In this document: piece by piece, positions 10,578-21,654 of the stretch
Layout of the letters: every line of letters begins with the position of its first letter
Position numbering within the stretch: position 1 is the first letter of the stretch
Source of the DNA: an uncultured Collinsella sp.
GTDB lineage: Bacteria; Actinomycetota; Coriobacteriia; Coriobacteriales; Coriobacteriaceae
DNA length: 23,210 nt
Direction of reading: 5' to 3'
NCBI GenBank assembly: GCA_934650975.1
Contig: CAKUFW010000027.1
Span: forward strand, 1-23,210
The notes under the pieces: generated by a model
The model's database searches: none
What the model saw: only the letters and a program-made list of their open reading frames with translations
What the model was told of the DNA's origin: nothing
Translations under genes and position numbers: made by a program

Positions 10578-10850
10578 GGGACGGGCTTTCCGCTAAACAG
10601 CTGTTGCGGAAAGCCTGTCCCGTTCTAGACGTCGATTATGGAACACGATTTCCGCCTGAAGCTCAACCGGAAACTGTGTCCCGTATTTTTGCTGAATTCT
10701 GGGTCGCGCTTTCCCAGACGACTCCCTTTGGGAAACCGCATCCCGTTCTGGCCGCATATTCCGGGATGCGCTTTCCGCCAGACAGCTCAACCGGAAAGCG
10801 CGTCCCACTCTAAGCGCCGATTCCGGGTTGTAGTTTCCCGGTGCATGACT
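10578..10850. repeat. Tandem array of hairpin units, period 61-62 nt
   Basis: Four units begin at 10578, 10640, 10701 and 10763, each 43-44 nt and separated by exactly 18-nt linkers; a truncated fifth starts at 10825. Each unit runs GGG...TTTCC(G/C)...loop...GGAAA...TCCC, with a 15-bp stem and 13-14-nt loop. Units 1 and 4 pair fully apart from one wobble; units 2 and 3 contain 2-3 mismatches. Linkers are related, with consensus near GTTCTGGACGCCGATTCC. The first unit begins 6 nt after the repressor stop and the array ends before the aspS terminator. No T-run follows, so these are not ordinary terminators. Confidence 0.8.
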
Positions 10851-12726: not shown

Positions 12727-12747
12727 ACCAGTGATCCTCCTTTATGG

Positions 12748-12789
12748 ATCTGTGCCGCCCCGTGTCGTTCCGGGCGGCGTCGTACAGAT
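12748..12789 (-). promoter_or_regulatory. Stem-loop in the aspS leader
   Basis: ATCTGT (12748-12753) pairs with ACAGAT (12784-12789), and directly inside it GCCGCCC (12754-12760) pairs with GGGCGGC (12772-12778), leaving one 5-nt bulge and an 11-nt loop. The structure ends about 7 nt before the ribosome binding site of aspS and has no T-run, so it is a candidate translational or mRNA-stability element. A -10-like TAAGAT lies upstream (plus 12832-12837), so the hairpin would be transcribed. Confidence 0.45.
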
Positions 12790-12982
12790 TTGCCCAGCCT
12801 GCGTAAACCGCGCAGCCAGACATGGCGTTCTATCTTATCGCATCTGTGTCGATGTGCCGCGAAAAAGTGGCTCCTGCCCAAAGACTTGACGGAGACGAAA
12901 CAATTGACGCGCCGCGGCACCCACCCGCGCTCGTCACGTGCGACAATATGCCCCAATAAAACAGCACTCGGAAAGGCCCGCC

Positions 12983-13734: not shown

Positions 13735-14517
13735 ATGGACAAACGCGATCTTGAGCAATTGCTAAGTGACGTGGCAGATGGAAATGTTGCACCGGCCGAT
13801 GCCCTCACGCGCATCCAGACGGCTCCGACCGCCGATCTGGGCTTTGCACAGCTCGATCTTTCGCGCGGAGTGCGCCAGGGAGCCGGCGAGGTTGTCTACG
13901 GCGCCGGTAAAACCGCCGAGCAAATTGCCGCCATTATCAAAGCATTACTCGATGCCGGCCAGGAGCGTATCCTGGTCACGCGCTTGGATGCCGAAAAAGC
14001 CGCGCGCACCGCTGAGCTTCTTGGCAACGACATCGACCTGGGATATGTCCCGGACGCCCAGCTCGCCCTGGTGGGTGGCAAGCCCTCCCCCACCGGCAAC
14101 GGACGCATCGTCGTCGCCTGCGCCGGCACGAGCGACCTACCCGTCGCCGAGGAGGCCGCGTTGACGGCCGAGTTCTACGGCAACGAGGTCGATCGCCTCT
14201 ACGACGTGGGTGTCGCCGGCCTGCACCGTCTGCTTGCTCATGCCGAAGAACTTGCCCAGGCGCAGGTGGTCATCGCCATCGCCGGCATGGAAGGCGCCCT
14301 GGCGAGCGTCATCGGAGGCCTTGTGAGCTGTCCGGTCATCGCCGTCCCCACCAGCGTGGGTTATGGCGCGAGCTTTGGCGGCGTGGCCGCACTGCTCGCC
14401 ATGCTCAACTCCTGCGCCAGCGGCGTTTCGGTCGTCAACATCGACAACGGCTTCGGCGCGGCCTATCAGGCAAGTCTTATCAATCATCTGAGCGCCGGCG
14501 CGTCCTGCGCCCGCTAA
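13735..14517 (+). CDS. larB: LarB, nickel-pincer cofactor biosynthesis carboxylase
   Basis: First enzyme of nickel-pincer nucleotide synthesis: carboxylates the pyridinium ring of nicotinic acid adenine dinucleotide and splits the phosphoanhydride. The 260-residue protein has a PurE (AIR carboxylase)-like C-terminal domain with V-V-A-C-A-G-T-S-D-L-P-V-A-E-E-A near residues 125-140, G-M-E-G-A-L-A-S-V-I-G-G-L near 185 and P-V-I-A-V-P-T-S-V-G-Y-G-A near 205. The N-terminal part (D-L-S-R-G-V-R-Q-G-A-G-E-V-V-Y-G) is also typical of LarB. The ATG at 13735 follows GAAGGGAA. It is 10 nt upstream of larC, whose ribosome binding site overlaps the larB stop. Confidence 0.95.
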   Translation: MDKRDLEQLLSDVADGNVAPADALTRIQTAPTADLGFAQLDLSRGVRQGAGEVVYGAGKTAEQIAAIIKALLDAGQERILVTRLDAEKAARTAELLGNDIDLGYVPDAQLALVGGKPSPTGNGRIVVACAGTSDLPVAEEAALTAEFYGNEVDRLYDVGVAGLHRLLAHAEELAQAQVVIAIAGMEGALASVIGGLVSCPVIAVPTSVGYGASFGGVAALLAMLNSCASGVSVVNIDNGFGAAYQASLINHLSAGASCAR

Positions 14518-14527
14518 GGAGCATTTC

Positions 14528-15445
14528 ATGTCAAACCATCAGCACACGCTTATCATCGACGGCACCTCGGGCATCAGCGGCGACATGACCGTCGCGGCCC
14601 TGCTCGACCTGGGCGCCAGCGAGGAGCATCTGCGCGAGCAGCTCGCCACGCTTCCGGTCGGCGGCTTTGAGATTGCCGTGACGCGCGTAAACAAGCATGG
14701 CATCGACGCCTGCGACTTTGACGTTCAGCTGGCAGAGGAGCTCGAGAACCACGACCACGACATGGCCTGGCTCTACGGCAACGAAGCAGCTGTCGAGCAC
14801 ACGCACGAGCACGAGCACCACCATCATGATCATGGCGAGCACGAACACGAGCACTGCCACGAGCATGACCATGAGGCCCACGGTCATGGCCACGAGGGTC
14901 ACCATCACGCCCACCACCATCACCACCGTTCTTTGGCGGACGTCACCGCCATCATCGACGGCTCGCAGCTAAGCGATGGCGCCAAGCGTCGCGCACTCGC
15001 CATCTTTACCGCGCTCGCCGCCGCCGAGGCCAAGGCCCACGGCAAAACGCCCGAGACCGTCATGTTCCACGAGGTGGGCGCCGTCGACTCCATCGTCGAC
15101 GTCTGCTCCGTCGCCATCTGCCTCGATGACCTGGGTATTGAGGACATCGTGGTCGAGTCGCTCTCCGAGGGTCACGGCACCATCCACTGCGCCCACGGCC
15201 TTATGCCCATCCCCGTCCCCGCTGTCGTCAACCTGTGCCAGGCGGGCAATATCGCCCTCACGCCCGCGCCGGTCGCCGGCGAGCTCGTGACGCCCACGGG
15301 CGCCGCCATCGTTGCCGCACTGCGCACGTCCGAGCACCTGCCGGCCCGCTACCGCATCGAGGCCGTCGGCTACGGCGCCGGTAAGCGCCCCTACGAGGGC
15401 TGCTCCGGCACGCTCCGTTGCCTGCTTGTTCACGTGGATGCATAG
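14528..15445 (+). CDS. larC: LarC1, N-terminal half of the nickel-insertion protein LarC
   Basis: LarC is the CTP-dependent cyclometallase that inserts nickel into the pincer cofactor. This 305-residue protein has the LarC start (D-G-T-S-G-I-S-G-D-M, residues 11-20) and a His-rich stretch at 91-133 with 25 His of 43 residues, expected to bind nickel. It also has the conserved H-E-V-G-A-V-D-S-I-V-D, the H-G-L-M-P-I-P-V-P-A segment and the final G-Y-G-A-G-K-R. It stops at T-L-R-C-L-L-V-H-V-D-A, where LarC1 normally gives way to LarC2, the CTP-binding domain. No LarC2 sequence follows in any frame, since the TetR gene starts 2 nt later. The ribosome binding site TAAGGAG overlaps the larB stop. 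Confidence 0.93.
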   Translation: MSNHQHTLIIDGTSGISGDMTVAALLDLGASEEHLREQLATLPVGGFEIAVTRVNKHGIDACDFDVQLAEELENHDHDMAWLYGNEAAVEHTHEHEHHHHDHGEHEHEHCHEHDHEAHGHGHEGHHHAHHHHHRSLADVTAIIDGSQLSDGAKRRALAIFTALAAAEAKAHGKTPETVMFHEVGAVDSIVDVCSVAICLDDLGIEDIVVESLSEGHGTIHCAHGLMPIPVPAVVNLCQAGNIALTPAPVAGELVTPTGAAIVAALRTSEHLPARYRIEAVGYGAGKRPYEGCSGTLRCLLVHVDA

Positions 15446-15447
15446 CC

Positions 15448-15987
15448 ATGGATGCCCGCAAAACCAAAAGCCGCGCCGCCATCGTTGCCGCATTCTCTGA
15501 GCTCCTTCGCGAGGAGGACTACGGCAAGATCACCGTCGGCGACATCATCGCTCGCGCCCATGTGGGTCGGGCCACGTTCTACGGCCTCTTCAAGAGCAAA
15601 GATGACCTACTGTCCGAACTCGTGAGCGACATCTGCACCCACGCCCTCGACGACGATGGCACACCGCTCGATGATCCGCTCGTACAAGTCGAGCATATCC
15701 TCAACAACCTCTGGGAACGCCGCCAGGGCGTACGAGCCCTCGTAGCCGGCGCCGGCTCACGCGTCTTCGCCGACTGCTTACGCAAGACCATCATGTCACG
15801 AGCAGCCGAAACCGTCCCCACCGACCCAAACGGCCCCGCCGCCACCATGGACCGAAGCTTCCTGCTACACCACATAGCCTCAAGCTTCGTAGGAACAGTC
15901 CAATGGTGGGCCTGGCACAACTTCGAAGCAGAAAAAGCCGACGTAGCCAAAGACTACCTATCGGCCATACAACCCCTCTTCAACTAA
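15448..15987 (+). CDS. TetR/AcrR-family transcriptional regulator
   Basis: A 179-residue regulator with an N-terminal TetR helix-turn-helix at about residues 9-55 (I-T-V-G-D-I-I-A-R-A-H-V-G-R-A-T-F-Y-G-L-F-K-S-K) and an all-helical ligand domain ending in G-T-V-Q-W-W-A-W-H-N, a pattern of one TetR C-terminal subfamily. The ATG at 15448 lies 2 nt after the larC stop, so it is probably translated by coupling; the same frame is open 30 nt further upstream inside larC. Being the third gene of larB-larC-tetR, it is the natural candidate regulator of the lar genes, in place of the Crp/Fnr-type LarR of Lactiplantibacillus. The ligand is unknown. The last third uses more A-ending codons than neighbouring genes. 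Confidence 0.88.
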   Translation: MDARKTKSRAAIVAAFSELLREEDYGKITVGDIIARAHVGRATFYGLFKSKDDLLSELVSDICTHALDDDGTPLDDPLVQVEHILNNLWERRQGVRALVAGAGSRVFADCLRKTIMSRAAETVPTDPNGPAATMDRSFLLHHIASSFVGTVQWWAWHNFEAEKADVAKDYLSAIQPLFN

Positions 15988-15998
15988 GCAAGCCTCTC

Positions 15999-16072
15999 AT
16001 CCCAAAGCACCGCCCCACCCCAAGGCGCCACGTATCCCAAAGCGTTACCCGCATCTCAAAGCGCCTAACAAC
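15999..16072. repeat. Degenerate short direct repeats
   Basis: Four consecutive segments of 17-20 nt begin ATCCCAAAGC, ACCCCAAGGC, ATCCCAAAGC and ATCTCAAAGC (15999, 16017, 16034, 16053). They follow the tetR stop and encode nothing. The remaining 78 bp of this gap (16073-16150) is AT-richer and shows no recognisable gene. The repeat may be decayed. Confidence 0.35.
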
Positions 16073-16150
16073 AAAGTGCCCAACACATCCAAATTCAGAT
16101 ATATATGTAGTGTTGCGTGTTGCTTGCTCCAATGCAACTGGATTCCCGCA

Positions 16151-16277
16151 GGGTCCGGCATAGGTTAACTTTCCGCCGCACTCCGCAGAACGCAAGAAGC
16201 TCCCGCCGCACGAAGTGCGCAGCGGGAGCTTCTTGCATGTTCGAGGACGCGGCGGAAAGTTAACCTATGCCGGACCC
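16151..16277. repeat. 127-nt bipartite palindromic element, copy 1 (after larD)
   Basis: Perfect 29-bp outer arms at 16151-16179 and 16249-16277; 12-nt internal segments ACTCCGCAGAAC (16180-16191) and ATGTTCGAGGAC (16237-16248); perfect 15-bp inner arms at 16192-16206 and 16222-16236; tip CGCAC-GAA-GTGCG. Inside the internal segments GAAC can pair with GTTC. It lies between the convergent genes tetR and larD, 24 nt after the larD stop. There is no T-run on either side, so it is not a standard terminator. It is homologous to the element at 18679-18805. Confidence 0.9.
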
Positions 16278-16301
16278 GGACGTTATATCAATTACTTCGG
16301 A

Positions 16302-17033
16302 CTAGAACATGCCCAAGAAACCATGCACAAACAGCGCAGCCACAGCAGCACCGACAAACGGAGCGATGCCGGGAACAAGCAGGCCGTACTTCCAGTTGTT
16401 GTCAGCCTTGTTCTTAATCGGCAGCACCTGATAGGCCATGCGAGGACCAAGGTCACGAGCCTGGTTCATGGCGAAGCCGGTGATGCCACCCATGCCCATG
16501 CCAACGGCCCAAACGATCAGGCCAACGCAGATGGCGAGCATCAGAACGTTCTCGCCGGCGCGGCTAGCGGCAGCAAGGATGGCGCTGATGAACACGAAGG
16601 TGCAGATAGCCTCGCAGAAGAAGTTGCGGGCATAGTTGGTACCCTCGGTGGTGGGGTTGGTCGAGAAAATGTTGCGCTGGGCAATGGGGTCGACGACGCC
16701 CTCGGAAGCCTTGAACTCATCGGCATACATAAACCAAGCGATTACGGCGCCCACAAAGCCGCCGAGCATATCGGCAATCATGAAGGGGATGCAGCTGCTC
16801 CACGGCACCAGGCCTACGATGCACTGGGCAAGCACCATGGCGGGGTTCATGCACACGGCGCCGCCAAAGACAAACAGGCAGACCGAGATGCCAAAAGACC
16901 AGGTGGTGATGGCAAACATGTGGCCAGAGCCCTGATACTTGGTGCCCTTGAGCACGGTATCGCAGTGCACGCCCACGCCAAAGACGATCATGAGGGCCGT
17001 CGCGCCGAATTCGCAGAGGAGTTTGGTAAGCAT
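16302..17033 (-). CDS. larD: LarD-like aquaglyceroporin (lactate/glycerol channel)
   Basis: A 243-residue membrane channel of the MIP family with six hydrophobic segments. The first pore motif is intact (N63-P64-A65 in C-M-N-P-A-M-V-L-A). The second reads N190-Q191-A192-R193 (G-F-A-M-N-Q-A-R-D-L-G-P-R) where NPAR is usual. In Lactiplantibacillus plantarum LarD is a lactic acid channel encoded with larA. Here the gene begins 49 nt after larA in the same direction, which supports the same role. The ATG at 17033 has a modest ribosome binding site (AAGG). A glycerol facilitator is the alternative; the sequence alone does not decide. Confidence 0.85.
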   Translation of the reverse strand: MLTKLLCEFGATALMIVFGVGVHCDTVLKGTKYQGSGHMFAITTWSFGISVCLFVFGGAVCMNPAMVLAQCIVGLVPWSSCIPFMIADMLGGFVGAVIAWFMYADEFKASEGVVDPIAQRNIFSTNPTTEGTNYARNFFCEAICTFVFISAILAAASRAGENVLMLAICVGLIVWAVGMGMGGITGFAMNQARDLGPRMAYQVLPIKNKADNNWKYGLLVPGIAPFVGAAVAALFVHGFLGMF

Positions 17034-17082
17034 AAAACCTTATCTTTCTTGTCGGTTATAAACGATTCGTTTAGGCCGCGCA

Positions 17083-18360
17083 CTAGTGCTGCGCGACGAC
17101 AACGCCCAGGCCATCGGGAATGACGGCCACCTTAGCATCGGCACCCTTCATCTCAAAGGCGAGCTTGAGCGCCTCCTCGATAGTGTTGACCGGCGTCATG
17201 TGCATATCCTTGAGCATCTGGTGATCGCACAGGTCGGTGACCATGATCACAGGGTGATGCGCCAGGATGCGGGCAAAAATCTGGCTCGTCCACTGATCGG
17301 GCAGGGTCTCGTCCTTGGGACGATCGATGCAGGCGCGCTCAAACTCCGCCGGATCGTTGTCGGCGATGTTGTGATAGAAGCCCTCGCCACCGTGACCGTC
17401 GGCACAACCGGCGACGTCGATGATCACACCGCCCTCGGGAAGCGTAGCCTCGGCAGCGCACATGCCCTTCACGGCCTGGTAGATGTTCTGGTCGAGCGGG
17501 TAGCCGCCGTTGGTGGTGATGGCGATCTCGCACTCGACGGGCTCAACGCCGGCAAGGCTCTTCACGAACTCGCAGCCAGCCTCGTGCGCCTTGTGGATGT
17601 CGCCGGCAAAGGAGCCGATGACCTCATGCTTGCCGTTGAGCACCACGTTGAGCACAAAGGCAAGGTGAGCCATCTCGGCGGCGGCGAACATGTCCTCGCT
17701 CACGTGGTTGTGGCACAGGTTGCCGGCACGCGAGTGGGAATCGTTCACAAACTGACCGTTGTGGTTGTACATGATGGTCTTGTAGCTGGCGATGCCAGGC
17801 AGGACGGACTTGCGGCTACCAGAGAAACCGGCAAAGAAGTGCGGCTCAATAAAGCCCTCGGCAAGCAGCAGATCGCAATCGGCGGCAATCTTGTTGATAA
17901 TGCACTCGCCACCAGAAGGCAGGGTGCCGATCTTTTTCATCATGCTGTCGTCAGTCGCGACGTGCATAACGATTTCCTCGTTGGCAACGATCTCCTCGCC
18001 GTACTTGTTGACGAGCTCCTCGTGCGTCGACGGGCGGTGCATGCCCGTAGCAACCAAAATACGCACACGAGCCTCGGGCGCAGCAGCATGAATGTGATGC
18101 AGCAGAATAGGCATCGTCACACGCGAAGGAACCGGACGCGTATGGTCGGAGCTAATGATAACGATGTCCTTCTTGCCAGCACAAAGCTCCTCGAGCGAAG
18201 GCGAGCCATAAGGATTGGCAAGCGACTCTTCTACCAGCTCTTGCTGCGTTTTTGTAGTCTCAAACTCGTTTTGATGACCCTCCATCACACCCGCGAAATT
18301 CTTATCCTCGAGCTCCAGATGCAACGTCTTGTGGTCAAACGGCAGTTCACATTCAAACAA
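17083..18360 (-). CDS. larA: Lactate racemase LarA
   Basis: Interconverts L- and D-lactate using the covalently bound nickel-pincer cofactor. I place the start at TTG 18360, giving 425 residues: it follows GGAAGAGGG by 9 nt and puts every key residue at the same number as in L. plantarum LarA, namely His108, His174, Lys184 (cofactor attachment) and His200 (nickel ligand). Hallmarks are S-S-D-H-T-R-P-V-P-S at 70-79, A-T-G-M-H-R-P-S-T-H-E-E at 104-115 and G-G-Y-P-L-D-Q-N-I-Y-Q in the C-terminal domain. The frame is open 26 codons further upstream without any family similarity. It is the first gene of larA-larD, opposite in direction to larB-larC. Confidence 0.96.
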   Translation of the reverse strand: MFECELPFDHKTLHLELEDKNFAGVMEGHQNEFETTKTQQELVEESLANPYGSPSLEELCAGKKDIVIISSDHTRPVPSRVTMPILLHHIHAAAPEARVRILVATGMHRPSTHEELVNKYGEEIVANEEIVMHVATDDSMMKKIGTLPSGGECIINKIAADCDLLLAEGFIEPHFFAGFSGSRKSVLPGIASYKTIMYNHNGQFVNDSHSRAGNLCHNHVSEDMFAAAEMAHLAFVLNVVLNGKHEVIGSFAGDIHKAHEAGCEFVKSLAGVEPVECEIAITTNGGYPLDQNIYQAVKGMCAAEATLPEGGVIIDVAGCADGHGGEGFYHNIADNDPAEFERACIDRPKDETLPDQWTSQIFARILAHHPVIMVTDLCDHQMLKDMHMTPVNTIEEALKLAFEMKGADAKVAVIPDGLGVVVAQH

Positions 18361-18450
18361 TGACGAGCGCCCTCTTCCTTTCAACTGACACACTAGATAA
18401 ACCGTTGGAAGGATACTCCGCTCACCGATAACAACCAACCACCCACCAAC

Positions 18451-18478
18451 CCATTAACAGAACGTTCACAATTGACAA
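18451..18478 (-). promoter_or_regulatory. Candidate larA promoter
   Basis: On the minus strand TTGTCA (plus 18473-18478) is followed after 16 nt by TAATGG (plus 18451-18456), about 90 nt before the larA start. The spacer contains the palindrome GAACGTTC (18460-18467), a possible operator core. It shares GAAC/GTTC half-sites with the larB dyad but with different spacing, so a common regulator is only a possibility. Confidence 0.4.
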
Positions 18479-18479
18479 G

Positions 18480-18678
18480 TACAAAAAGGCGGCCGCAGCC
18501 CCAAAAGGAACCACGACCGCCGTCCAAAACGCACGAAGCGCCAAATGCATCTCAATCCCGACCGATAAGGCGCTAGGCGCGAAGCGCCGCACGCGCCGCC
18601 GGGACAGATCCCCATCCAAAACGCGCGAAGCGCGCCATTCTTCCCTCAGCCCGTAATCCCCAGAAGACCGAGGACGAA
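18480..18678. other. Non-coding GC-rich stretch with GAA-tipped hairpins
   Basis: Between the larA promoter and the second 127-nt palindrome there is no credible gene. It contains three short hairpins around GAA: near 18530-18542 (related but imperfect), 18572-18584 (GGCGC-GAA-GCGCC) and 18616-18630 (GCGC-GAA-GCGC). Two of them follow the direct repeat TCCAAAACGC. It also holds AAGACCGAGGAC at 18666-18677, which matches the right internal segment of the palindrome next to it at 10 of 12 bases. A decayed copy of that element is a possible explanation. Confidence 0.4.
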
Positions 18679-18805
18679 GGGCCCCGATGGGTTTCCCTCT
18701 GAGCGCATTCCGCAGCACGAAGCCCCCTTATCCGCAGCTCCGAAGGAGCAGGATAAGGGGGCTTCAAGTGCGAGGACGCGCTCAGAGGGAAACCCATCGG
18801 GGCCC
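18679..18805. repeat. 127-nt bipartite palindromic element, copy 2 (after ppc)
   Basis: Perfect 28-bp outer arms at 18679-18706 and 18778-18805; 12-nt internal segments ATTCCGCAGCAC (18707-18718) and AAGTGCGAGGAC (18766-18777); perfect 15-bp inner arms at 18719-18733 and 18751-18765; tip GCTCC-GAA-GGAGC. GCAC in the left segment can pair with GTGC in the right. It begins 23 nt after the ppc stop. Total length equals that of the copy at 16151-16277 and the orientation is the same. Confidence 0.9.
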
Positions 18806-18828: not shown

Positions 18829-21654
18829 TTACCCCGTGTTTTGCAGTCCTGCCGAGACGCCGGTCACAGTCGAAAGAATCAGGCTCATGTACTCAGCCTT
18901 CTTCTCCTCGGCCATCTCGTCCTGGTTCATACGCACCTCGCGAAGGGCGCGAACCTGGGCGATGGACAGAGCGTCGACGTAAGGGTTACGGACGCGGACG
19001 GCGCAGCCAAGCACGCGGCGGCGCTGCAGCGGCCATTCGTCACCGACGATGGCAAGAACCCACTTACGGGTGAGCTGCATCTCGGTGAAGACCTTCTCGG
19101 ACAGATCCTGGCGATCGCCCAGGTGCAGGTACATCTTGGCGATGCGCTGATCGGTCTTAGCGATCGACATCTCGATGTTGTCGATGAACGTGCGGAAGAA
19201 CGGCCACTCCTGGTAGGCAGCCTTGAGCTGGTCAAGATCGCCCAGCTGCTCGCAGGCGGTGCCCAGGCCGTACCAAGCGGCCAGGTTAATGCGCGCCTGG
19301 CTCCAGCTGAAGATCCACGGAATAGTACGCAGGTCGTCGAGCGACTTGGCACCAAGACCGCGCTTGGCGGGACGCGAGCCGATCGGCAGCAGACCGACCT
19401 CGGTCAACGGCGTCACGGTCGAGAACCACGGTGTAAAGTCCTCGGTGTTCAGCAGGTCCAGATAGCGCTCATGGCTTACTGCGTTGAGCTTCTCCGCCAT
19501 ATCCCAGAACTTCTGCGTGGTCTCGGTGTTGGTCTTCTCGACGCTCGGGGCCGACTGAAGCAGCGTTGCGGCAGCAACGGACTCAACATGGCGCTGAGCC
19601 AGCGTGCGGTTGCCGTAACGGGCAAAGATGACCTCGCCCTGCTCGGTGAGCTTAAAGAAGCAGTTGACCGAACCCTTGGGCTGCGCCAGAACGGCCTTGT
19701 TGGCCGGACCGCCGCCACGGCCCACGGCACCGCCGCGGCCGTGCATGAGCACTAGGTCGATATCGTTCTTCTCGGCCCACTTGGCAATGCGCTCCTGCGC
19801 GGAGTGCAGGGCGAGCATGGCCGTGGTAGGACCGGCATCCTTGGAGGAGTCGGAGTAGCCCAGCATGACCTCCATGCGGCGGTTGGTCTGGGCAAGGCGC
19901 TTTTGCACCACGGGCAGCGTGAGCATCTGATCGAGCACGTCGACGCAGCCCTCGAGGTCCTCGAGCTGCTCGAACAGCGGGATCACGTCGAGCTCGGGGA
20001 CATCCTCCTCGTGCGCAAAGGACAGGTGGGCAAGCTCAAAGACGTCGGCCACATGTTGGGCGCTCTTGGTGAACGAGATGATGTAGCGGTGCGCCATCTT
20101 CTTGCCGTAGCGCTTTTGGATGGAGCCGATAGCGCGGAAGGTATCGATGACCTCGCGCGTCATGGGCTGCAGGTCGCCGTGGATACCGTTCTCGTGGATA
20201 TCCTTGAGGGCGCGGGCGTGCACCACGGAGTGCTGACGGAACTCCATCTCGACCATATGGAAGCCGAAGGACTCGACCTGCCAGATGATGGTCTGGACCG
20301 GGCCGTAGGCAGCACGGACGGCACCGCAGGCGGCCAGCGAGCGCTGGACGACACGCAGGTCCTCCAGAAACTCATCGGCACTGTGGTACATGGTGTCGGT
20401 GATGCGGCGCACGGTGGCGTTCAGACGGTCGGCCATGACGAGCATGACGGCGCGATGCGGCTCGTGCTCGGAGATGAGCTCGGCGCGGGCCGTGTACTGG
20501 GCGCTCATCTCGACCTGATGGTTCCACAGGTTCATAAGCTCGGCAGACGGCTTGCTGTAGGCGGCCTCGAGCGTCAGGTTACGACCGATGCGGCGGCACT
20601 TGTCTTCGAGCTTGAGCACCATATGGGTGAAGTACTTGGCGGCGACCTCGCGGCTCACCTTAGCGGTGACGTTGGGGTTACCGTCGCGGTCGGAACCGAT
20701 CCAGCTGCCGGGATGGAAGAACGCCGGGCACAGCGGCGGCACGGTGCCGGCCTTGTCGCCCAGCACCCAGTCGTCAAAGCGACGATAGATGACGGGAATG
20801 ATGTCGAACAGCGTGTTGTCGAAGATGTCGATGATGGTATCGGCTTCCTCGACGGGCGTGGGCTTCTTGAGCGCGATGGGGCTCGTGCGCACCAGGGCGT
20901 CGATCTCCTGCAGCATATGGCGCTCGTTCTCCACCAGGTCGGAGCCGCCCAGACGCGGACGCTCCTCCAGCAGGTTGGAGATACGGCGGATCTTGCCCTC
21001 GACGGCCTTACGACGGGCCTCGGTGGGATGCGCGGTAAAGACGGGGTGGAACTCCAGCTTGCCGAGCAGCTCATTGGCACCCTCGACGCCCATCTCGTCT
21101 ACCAGCTGGTGGTAAGCGACGGTGAGCTCGTTGGCGGGATCGACCTCGGTATCGGTCGACGCGCCGGCCTCGCGCTCGCGCAGCTGGGCCACGCGGTAAT
21201 TCTCCTCCGACAGGTTTGCCAGATGGAAGAAGCTCGTAAAGGCGCGGACGATAACCTGCTGCTTATCGAGCGGCAGACTGTCAATCAGATCGACGACCTC
21301 GCGGAACGCAACGGCGGTGGACTCGTCGGCGGTAGGCACGCCCTGCTCATCAACGGCCTCGTCGGCAGCACGGCTACCGGGGTTGCCGGCATTGGCCGCA
21401 ATCTCGGCCGACAGGATCTTGTCGAACAGGTCCGCGATCTCGGGATCATACTCGCTAAGTACACGACGCTCCAGGCGCAGGAACAGCGCCAGATTGTCGC
21501 GAAGCTCCTCGGGGATCTCGATCTCGGCGAGACGCTCCTTGGACTCGGCATTCGAGCCGATACGGTTAACGAGGCGGTTGACCACGGCAGCGACGCGCGC
21601 CGCGGCTTCGGGTACAGACTGGTTGCTTAGGTTCTCAGCCACGTTTCCTCCCAT
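18829..21654 (-). CDS. ppc: Phosphoenolpyruvate carboxylase
   Basis: Anaplerotic enzyme converting phosphoenolpyruvate and bicarbonate to oxaloacetate. The 941-residue protein carries the catalytic T-A-H-P-T-E-A-R-R, G-S-D-R-D-G-N-P-N, V-M-L-G-Y-S-D-S-S-K-D-A-G and the glycine-rich H-G-R-G-G-A-V-G-R-G-G-G-P, and ends with the conserved Q-N-T-G. Length is slightly above E. coli PPC (883). The start is uncertain: the ATG at 21654 lies only 1 nt after AAGGAGG, whereas a GTG at 21642 follows GGGAGGAAAC and would shorten the protein by four residues. It has a -10 hexamer upstream and is transcribed separately from hisS, whose terminator lies between. Confidence 0.97.
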   Translation of the reverse strand: MGGNVAENLSNQSVPEAAARVAAVVNRLVNRIGSNAESKERLAEIEIPEELRDNLALFLRLERRVLSEYDPEIADLFDKILSAEIAANAGNPGSRAADEAVDEQGVPTADESTAVAFREVVDLIDSLPLDKQQVIVRAFTSFFHLANLSEENYRVAQLREREAGASTDTEVDPANELTVAYHQLVDEMGVEGANELLGKLEFHPVFTAHPTEARRKAVEGKIRRISNLLEERPRLGGSDLVENERHMLQEIDALVRTSPIALKKPTPVEEADTIIDIFDNTLFDIIPVIYRRFDDWVLGDKAGTVPPLCPAFFHPGSWIGSDRDGNPNVTAKVSREVAAKYFTHMVLKLEDKCRRIGRNLTLEAAYSKPSAELMNLWNHQVEMSAQYTARAELISEHEPHRAVMLVMADRLNATVRRITDTMYHSADEFLEDLRVVQRSLAACGAVRAAYGPVQTIIWQVESFGFHMVEMEFRQHSVVHARALKDIHENGIHGDLQPMTREVIDTFRAIGSIQKRYGKKMAHRYIISFTKSAQHVADVFELAHLSFAHEEDVPELDVIPLFEQLEDLEGCVDVLDQMLTLPVVQKRLAQTNRRMEVMLGYSDSSKDAGPTTAMLALHSAQERIAKWAEKNDIDLVLMHGRGGAVGRGGGPANKAVLAQPKGSVNCFFKLTEQGEVIFARYGNRTLAQRHVESVAAATLLQSAPSVEKTNTETTQKFWDMAEKLNAVSHERYLDLLNTEDFTPWFSTVTPLTEVGLLPIGSRPAKRGLGAKSLDDLRTIPWIFSWSQARINLAAWYGLGTACEQLGDLDQLKAAYQEWPFFRTFIDNIEMSIAKTDQRIAKMYLHLGDRQDLSEKVFTEMQLTRKWVLAIVGDEWPLQRRRVLGCAVRVRNPYVDALSIAQVRALREVRMNQDEMAEEKKAEYMSLILSTVTGVSAGLQNTG

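What the first reader, a model, noticed from the sequence alone, without database searches (positions are those of the whole stretch)
16151..18805. Two homologous 127-nt palindromes whose stems have changed in a fully compensated way
Copies at 16151-16277 and 18679-18805 have the same length, orientation and layout: outer arms of 28-29 bp, 12-nt internal segments, inner arms of 15 bp, GAA tip. The internal segments are conserved (A-Y-TCCGCAG-M-AC and A-W-GT-K-CGAGGAC, with Y, M, W, K as ambiguity codes). The outer arms match at about 17 of 28 positions, yet every difference is compensated, as both copies pair perfectly. Inside the internal segments GAAC/GTTC in one copy is replaced by GCAC/GTGC in the other. 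Such covariation with invariant internal segments points to a selected structure (RNA, or single-stranded DNA recognised by a protein), not to decay of a repeat. I do not recognise the family.
Basis: seen in the sequence. Interest (0 to 1): 0.72.

Follow-up and report, generated by a model that had tools for sequence, protein, structure and literature searches.

The report
Mirror-image hairpins after gut-bacterium genes
Gut bacteria of the Collinsella group carry a family of very stable hairpins just after the end of many metabolic genes; the arms change quickly yet mostly stay mirror images, apparently because one arm is copied onto the other, while a small central mark is kept, and what the hairpins do has not been tested.

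Summary
16151-16277 and 18679-18805 are homologous 127-nt nested palindromes with perfect outer stems (29 and 28 bp) and conserved, asymmetric 12-nt internal segments. They belong to a family: 14-17 places (partial and weak ones included) in each of three well-assembled Collinsella genomes, with a shorter ~92-nt form in other Collinsella, related genera and one genus of another family. No Rfam family overlaps them above its gathering score.

In gene sense 112 of 133 copies face a stop codon within 40 nt, against 1 of 133 on the other side. Hosts include ppc, glpF, groEL, PFOR, pfkA, fba, pta and asd.

The internal segments and their orientation look selected. The compensated arm changes are better explained by arm-to-arm copying (template switching): doubles outnumber singles overall, run on average near the fourfold-site divergence (varying widely by locus), G-U is no commoner than A-C, and one copy is symmetrised and another inverted.

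Best reading: a REP-like mRNA 3'-end element where terminators can otherwise lie; that function is inferred. IS insertions inside copies parallel those in REPs. New variant of a known kind.

The parts
16151..16277 (-). Copy 1, nested palindrome downstream of a glpF-like gene; sense strand is minus
16249..16277 (-). Copy 1 outer arm, 5' side in sense, 29 nt
16237..16248 (-). Copy 1 internal segment, 5' side in sense (GTCCTCGAACAT)
16192..16236 (-). Copy 1 inner hairpin (15-bp stem, 5-bp tip stem, GAA/TTC loop)
16180..16191 (-). Copy 1 internal segment, 3' side in sense (GTTCTGCGGAGT)
16151..16179 (-). Copy 1 outer arm, 3' side in sense, 29 nt
16302..17033 (-). Upstream gene of copy 1: MIP family (glycerol facilitator/aquaporin, glpF-like); stop codon 24 nt before the hairpin
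18679..18805 (-). Copy 2, nested palindrome downstream of ppc; sense strand is minus
18778..18805 (-). Copy 2 outer arm, 5' side in sense, 28 nt
18766..18777 (-). Copy 2 internal segment, 5' side in sense (GTCCTCGCACTT)
18719..18765 (-). Copy 2 inner hairpin (15-bp stem, 5-bp tip stem, GAA/TTC loop)
18707..18718 (-). Copy 2 internal segment, 3' side in sense (GTGCTGCGGAAT)
18679..18706 (-). Copy 2 outer arm, 3' side in sense, 28 nt
18829..21654 (-). Upstream gene of copy 2: phosphoenolpyruvate carboxylase (ppc); stop codon 23 nt before the hairpin
18488..18521 (-). Terminator-like hairpin with U tract, starting 158 nt downstream of copy 2 in sense
   Evidence: not found by my own finder

Best explanation
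The two palindromes belong to a Coriobacteriales family of 3'-UTR elements. Shown: 112 of 133 testable copies lie in one orientation within 40 nt after the stop codon of a coding ORF, in the stretch where some other genes and orthologs have canonical U-tract terminators; at one locus the two kinds alternate between strains with near-identical protein. Supported: the outer arms evolve in concert, best explained by template switching between arms during replication, while the asymmetric internal motif GUCCUCG/CUGCGGA and its orientation are kept. Inferred: the element is transcribed, the hairpin fixes the mRNA 3' end (a barrier to 3'-to-5' exonucleases, perhaps aiding termination), and the internal motif is the recognition site of an unknown RNA-binding protein or endonuclease. 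Arm sequence would not matter; pairing would.
For: Orientation: 112 of 133 against 1 of 133; gaps of 7-33 nt in 118 of the 127 copies with an upstream ORF of 50 or more codons (ORFs not scored there). Terminator slot: 13 of 13 clade ppc genes carry the element, 0 of 10 readable distant orthologs do, and G002 and G021 show a U-tract hairpin soon after the stop; after a lactaldehyde-reductase gene, 6 of 14 clade genomes have a canonical terminator and 6 the element, with 1 recombinant and 1 not comparable. Same genes across genera: groEL in g1, g20, g41; fba in g1, g17; ispG in g18, g19. Concerted arms. Copying events: L163, G009 asd. Inner 3' arms often T-rich: 60 of 130 long copies have 4 or more T in the last 7 nt.
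Against: No expression data: transcription, termination and 3' ends are untested. No U tract follows the outer stem (longest T run in 20 nt is 3 or less in 138 of 140). 20 copies at two loci plus L107 do not face a scored stop codon. A terminator-like site follows within 400 nt in 30 of 115 copies (20 of 115 on the opposite strand; this simple finder missed the window site). The distant ppc gene of G006 and several others have no terminator right after the stop, so the slot is not universal. The ratio of arm change to fourfold divergence differs by locus from about 0.1 to above 10, and in 5 of 16 loci singles exceed doubles. The missing G-U tolerance gives no sign that RNA pairing itself is selected.
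Confidence: 0.6

Rival explanations
1. Classical RNA covariation: point mutations compensated under selection for RNA pairing, without arm copying.
For: 41 of 56 pairs with changes on both sides, above shuffles and slid controls; fixed orientation to the gene; 5 of 16 loci with singles ahead of doubles; several loci far below the fourfold rate.
Against: G-U not commoner than A-C in sense (20 to 27; 23 to 31 raw); doubles exceed singles overall; symmetrised and inverted copies.
Confidence: 0.2
2. A REP/MITE-type mobile palindrome spread by a transposase, with place and orientation set by insertion preference.
For: Dispersed copies; 5 of 40 inner 19-nt segments at two or more loci against 1 of 70 outer segments (loci 7 and 16, probably one locus, account for one inner pair and the outer one); presence/absence differences; Y1 transposases in 22 of 24 Collinsella; IS hits as in REPs.
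Against: Of 22 Y1 loci examined (not all Y1 genes found), 20 show no copy, and the two that do overlap at one place in G015, beside a 167-aa Y1 gene. No clean empty site or target duplication at the two loci looked at. Shared host genes across genera. One orientation.
Confidence: 0.15
3. A dsRNA processing signal: the outer stem is cut by RNase III or a relative, with the internal loop steering the cut.
For: Scored outer stem of 28-29 pairs in 100 of 140 copies, 65 of these perfect, with an asymmetric internal loop; inner length varies.
Against: No RNA data; stem length may be inherited rather than selected; the fold-based length was not usable.
Confidence: 0.25
4. A DNA-level element: cruciform or protein-bound site acting on supercoiling or replication.
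For: Pairing without G-U preference on the sense strand.
Against: Orientation and distance to the upstream stop codon.
Confidence: 0.12

Closest known systems
REP elements / BIMEs (GTAG- and CGTC-tagged palindromes, PMC3733652)
   Same: Dispersed palindromes, mostly downstream of genes; REPs are targets of IS3- and IS110-family insertion (PMC1525189, passages); in E. coli 446 of 4,072 predicted REPs lie within 15 nt of a stop codon (PMC12306157, passages); CGTC REPs also lack a dedicated transposase.
   Different: About 92-135 nt rather than 20-40; 14-17 places per genome; variable arms around a conserved asymmetric internal loop; one orientation to the gene; no constant tetranucleotide tag seen; Collinsella and Coriobacteri- do not occur in that paper's text.
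Intrinsic (Rho-independent) terminators
   Same: Lie after the stop codon; alternate with the element at one locus; inner 3' arm often T-rich.
   Different: No U tract after the outer stem; conserved internal motif; far longer hairpin.
Hairpins kept paired by template switching (PMC8794818)
   Same: Paired changes, loop inversion and arm correction from copying events.
   Different: That paper treats RNA genes such as rRNA and microRNA; here it is a bacterial 3'-UTR family compared with synonymous divergence.
ERIC sequences (recalled)
   Same: Similar size (about 127 bp, recalled), intergenic palindrome.
   Different: Enterobacterial with its own core (recalled; not tested).

Membership tests
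REP (GTAG/CGTC-tagged) | 20-40 bp palindrome with an unpaired GTAG or CGTC tag at one end | tested here: not met
   Elements are about 92-135 nt; by eye the flanks of the aligned and printed copies vary with no constant tag. No statistical motif search of the flanks was run.
REP (GTAG/CGTC-tagged) | Extragenic, mostly downstream of coding regions | tested here: met
   112 of 133 within 40 nt after a scored stop codon
REP mobilised by RAYT | RAYT (Y1) gene flanked by the repeats | tested here: not met
   Y1_Tnp genes in 22 of 24 genomes; of 22 loci around Y1 genes, only L249 and L264 (one place in G015) contain a copy, on one side; the remaining Y1 genes were not examined
REP as IS target | IS3- or IS110-family elements inserted in the palindrome | tested here: met
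   rve-type (IS3-like) element at the tip in L152; HTH_Tnp_1 element at the same point in L157 and, by end sequence, L155; IS110 (PF01548) beside the internal segment in L096, same end sequence in L095
Intrinsic terminator | GC-rich hairpin followed at once by a U tract | tested here: not met
   After the outer stem the longest T run in 20 nt is 3 or less in 138 of 140. For the inner hairpin a T-rich stretch lies inside the outer structure in 60 of 130.
Rfam families incl. Collinsella-1 (RF01700) | Score above the family's gathering threshold | tested here: not met
   No match above threshold overlapping the elements in the window or in the 20 loci given; only weak microRNA-precursor scores
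Template-switch-maintained hairpin | Paired changes in excess of single ones, with overwritten or inverted centres | tested here: met
   Overall yes, but only in 11 of 16 loci; L163; G009 asd
ERIC | ERIC core sequence | not tested
   Considered from memory only

The most novel reading that the evidence does not exclude
A previously undescribed class of bacterial mRNA 3'-end element: a strand-specific internal-loop motif (GUCCUCG/CUGCGGA) read by a dedicated, unknown factor and held at the top of a roughly 28-bp stem whose sequence is free because template switching keeps copying one arm onto the other; it takes the place of canonical terminators at central-metabolism and chaperone genes of Coriobacteriales.
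Probability: 0.35. Interest if true: 0.78.

Novelty: new variant of a known kind. Interest (0 to 1): 0.6.

Why it matters
It gives a clear natural test case for a long-standing question: how long hairpins stay paired while their sequence drifts. It also warns that compensated changes alone, the usual proof of RNA structure, can come from mutation rather than selection. If the 3'-end role is right, it marks an unknown recognition factor acting on central metabolism genes of common human gut bacteria.

Tried and rejected
Rfam: nothing above gathering score on the elements. RAYT mobilisation: Y1 genes are common, but 20 of 22 examined loci have no copy; several have other hairpins. The Y1 gene beside one G015 copy was not pursued. 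Clean insertion sites: none at two loci. Fold-based outer stem length was not usable, because the flanks often pair on outwards up to the cut-off. Viral origin: the strict pattern gave 0 matches in viral contigs. The two non-Collinsella stretches among the 80 listed of 117 (Arthrobacter, a planctomycete) were taken as chance and not inspected. A fixed outer length as a ruler is suggestive only.

Caveats. The 140 copies were collected with the exact sense motif, so constancy of its first bases is by construction, L163 is not among them, and the covariance model was built from motif-selected copies. One search's listing was truncated, so per-locus counts are lower bounds. The rate comparison kept 311 of 418 pairs: pairs with arms under 60% identical, unlike proteins or few fourfold sites were left out. 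Locus 7 has no real upstream gene and supplies 21 of the 29 pairs of the lowest bin; without it there are 290 pairs, 902 doubles, 203 singles, mean 0.109 against 0.135. In the 0.02-0.05 bin arm change (0.13) exceeds fourfold divergence (0.03); above 0.2 it falls below. Spanning trees are not a formal phylogeny. My note says 12 readable asd loci; correct is 10 intact, 1 garbled and 3 not readable of 14. The order of change between terminator and element is unresolved.

Papers. Passages: PMC7771070, PMC8040213, PMC1525189, PMC12306157, PMC2864571, PMC3733652 (also its first part). PMC8794818: outline, abstract and discussion. Others: search listings only. I found no description of this family in searches of the held library, which lacks most subscription papers; supplements were not readable.
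Full report
OBSERVATION. The window holds two 127-nt palindromes at 16151-16277 and 18679-18805. Folding gives -106.6 and -113.7 kcal/mol on the + strand, z about -16. Both lie downstream of minus-strand genes: copy 1 starts 24 nt after the stop codon of a MIP-family (glpF-like) gene, copy 2 starts 23 nt after ppc.

A FAMILY. The strict motif hits 13 of 39 related genomes, all in the window's genus (13 of 24 there), with 0 in the reversed-pattern control. A covariance model from 22 copies finds matches in 21 of 39. In three well-assembled genomes I count 17, 14 and 16 distinct places after merging the two strands; these include partial and weak matches. Order-wide, 34 of 197 genomes match; from the listing, 27 of 35 in the genus, 6 of 13 in other genera of the family and 1 of 149 elsewhere (stricter filters). 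A closer look at 11 genomes found matches in 10, including g17-g20 and g41 of another family. Of 26 loci printed from that search (two of them Collinsella), 24 carry GTCCTCG in sense with a similar 3' segment. Distant copies mostly have a short core, 23-25 nt in 31 of 41. In genome contigs the strict pattern gives 117 stretches; of the 80 listed, 78 are Collinsella (mainly C. aerofaciens, also C. bouchesdurhonensis). Viral contigs gave 0.

POSITION AND ORIENTATION. From the loci held I collected 140 distinct copies with the exact sense motif. Of 133 with at least 250 nt on both sides, a scored coding ORF ends within 40 nt of the sense base in 112 and of the antisense base in 1. Gaps are 7-33 nt in 118 of 127 copies with an upstream ORF. 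The 21 exceptions are 9 copies of one locus, 11 of another, and L107. Host genes by profile search of one representative per locus include ppc, glpF-like, groEL, pyruvate:ferredoxin oxidoreductase, 6-phosphofructokinase, class II aldolase, pta, asd, thrB, ilvE, an Opp/Dpp ATPase, grcA3, a heavy-metal P-type ATPase and lactaldehyde reductase. In other genera: groEL in g20 and g41, fba in g17, ispG in g18 and g19, AdhE-like and glpK in g18, ftsH in g41. That such genes are highly expressed is general knowledge, not measured here.

TERMINATOR SLOT. Of 24 Collinsella genomes searched for ppc, all 13 of the aerofaciens clade carry the element; 0 of 10 readable others do and one (G009) was not read. 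G002 and G021 show a U-tract hairpin soon after the stop; in G006 it lies some 150 nt on, and others show none near. After the lactaldehyde-reductase gene, 6 clade genomes have a canonical terminator (about 50 nt after the stop) and 6 the element; G118 joins an element-like left half to a terminator-like right half, and G001 is not comparable. A second locus has the element in 4 and none in 1 of the 5 genomes that hold the gene. The inner hairpin resembles the terminator at the first locus, and 60 of 130 long copies have 4 or more T in the last 7 nt of the inner 3' arm. No U tract follows the outer stem. My simple finder sees a terminator within 400 nt downstream in 30 of 115 copies against 20 of 115 on the opposite strand; it missed the window site at 18521-18488 found.

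HOW THE ARMS EVOLVE. In the 22-sequence alignment 41 of 56 pairs show changes on both sides (31.1 in shuffles), with 304 such cells against 82.7. Over 311 ortholog pairs with recognisably homologous arms there are 905 compensated double and 261 single changes. On average double changes per pair are near the fourfold-site divergence (0.109 against 0.135 without locus 7), but locus by locus the ratio runs from about 0.1 to above 10, and bins above 0.2 fall behind. On spanning trees the counts are 126 to 50, with 5 others; doubles lead in 11 of 16 loci, and loci 7 and 9 have no doubles. Mismatches are rare (76 of 4039 cells), and G-U in sense is no commoner than A-C (20 to 27 after removing repeats, p = 0.38), whereas selection on RNA pairing should tolerate G-U. 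Two footprints were found: in G012 glpF the 5' segment has been overwritten by the complement of the 3' segment, making a perfect palindrome (L163); in G009 asd the centre, or the whole element, is inverted relative to the gene, while G017 and G022 have the usual orientation. Such events are described for template switching (PMC8794818). Their rarity beside the otherwise constant motif orientation is my argument that the motif is selected and strand-specific.

MODULES AND INSERTIONS. Inner hairpins are shared between loci: 5 of 40 inner 19-nt segments against 1 of 70 outer ones; the outer one and one inner one are loci 7 and 16, probably one locus. At glpF, G013, G024 and G004 have elements inserted at the hairpin tip, with rve domains in G013 and HTH_Tnp_1 in G024. 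In G008, after a gene I read as groEL, an IS110-type element (PF01548) sits in the internal segment; in G015, after a pta-like gene, the same end sequence does, but the frame found beside it is an HTH_Tnp_1 protein, so that insertion may be composite. REPs are known targets of both IS families (PMC1525189, passages).

MECHANISM. Shown: position, orientation, conserved internal motif. Supported: concerted arms by copying. Inferred: the RNA hairpin sets or protects the mRNA 3' end, and a factor binds or cuts the motif. RNase III processing is the strongest rival for the inferred part; a DNA-level role is not excluded. Mobility by a Y1 transposase is not supported by the 22 loci examined.

NOVELTY. 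It works like a REP-type 3' palindrome but fails the REP definition on size and, by eye, on tag. I found no description in the held library. I rate it a new variant of a known kind.

Noticed in passing
L152, L155, L157 (glpF) and L095, L096: Insertion elements sit at the hairpin tip or in the internal segment, suggesting Collinsella IS elements that target this family.
   Followed up: partly
L250, L252, L259, L262, L266: Y1 (RAYT-like) transposase loci contain other, unrelated hairpins, possibly REP-type families of Collinsella.
   Followed up: no
L440 (G008, asd 3' region): The element is replaced by long G and C runs in this assembly, probably a sequencing or polishing artefact at the hairpin.
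   Followed up: no
L303 (G118), 3' of the lactaldehyde-reductase gene: Apparent natural recombinant between an element and a canonical terminator, joined within the similar inner hairpins.
   Followed up: partly
Loci 7/16 (L020, L067, L071, L072, L193, L194, L204, L208, L245): Orthologous copies with no convincing upstream ORF in sense; the upstream DNA is conserved in eight of nine and might hold an unrecognised RNA gene.
   Followed up: partly
window 12738-12821, minus strand: aspS RNA (RF02930) above its gathering score, upstream of an aspartyl-tRNA-synthetase-like gene.
   Followed up: no
window 13735-18438: Lactate racemase gene set (LarA, a nickel-insertion protein, an AIR-carboxylase-family protein) next to the glpF-like gene.
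   Followed up: no
window 10730-10839: Another long imperfect inverted repeat (48-nt arms, 71% complementary) between convergent genes.
   Followed up: no
NZ_OY725717.1: An 899,693-base record labelled a plasmid carries central-metabolism genes and copies of the family; it looks like part of the chromosome.
   Followed up: no
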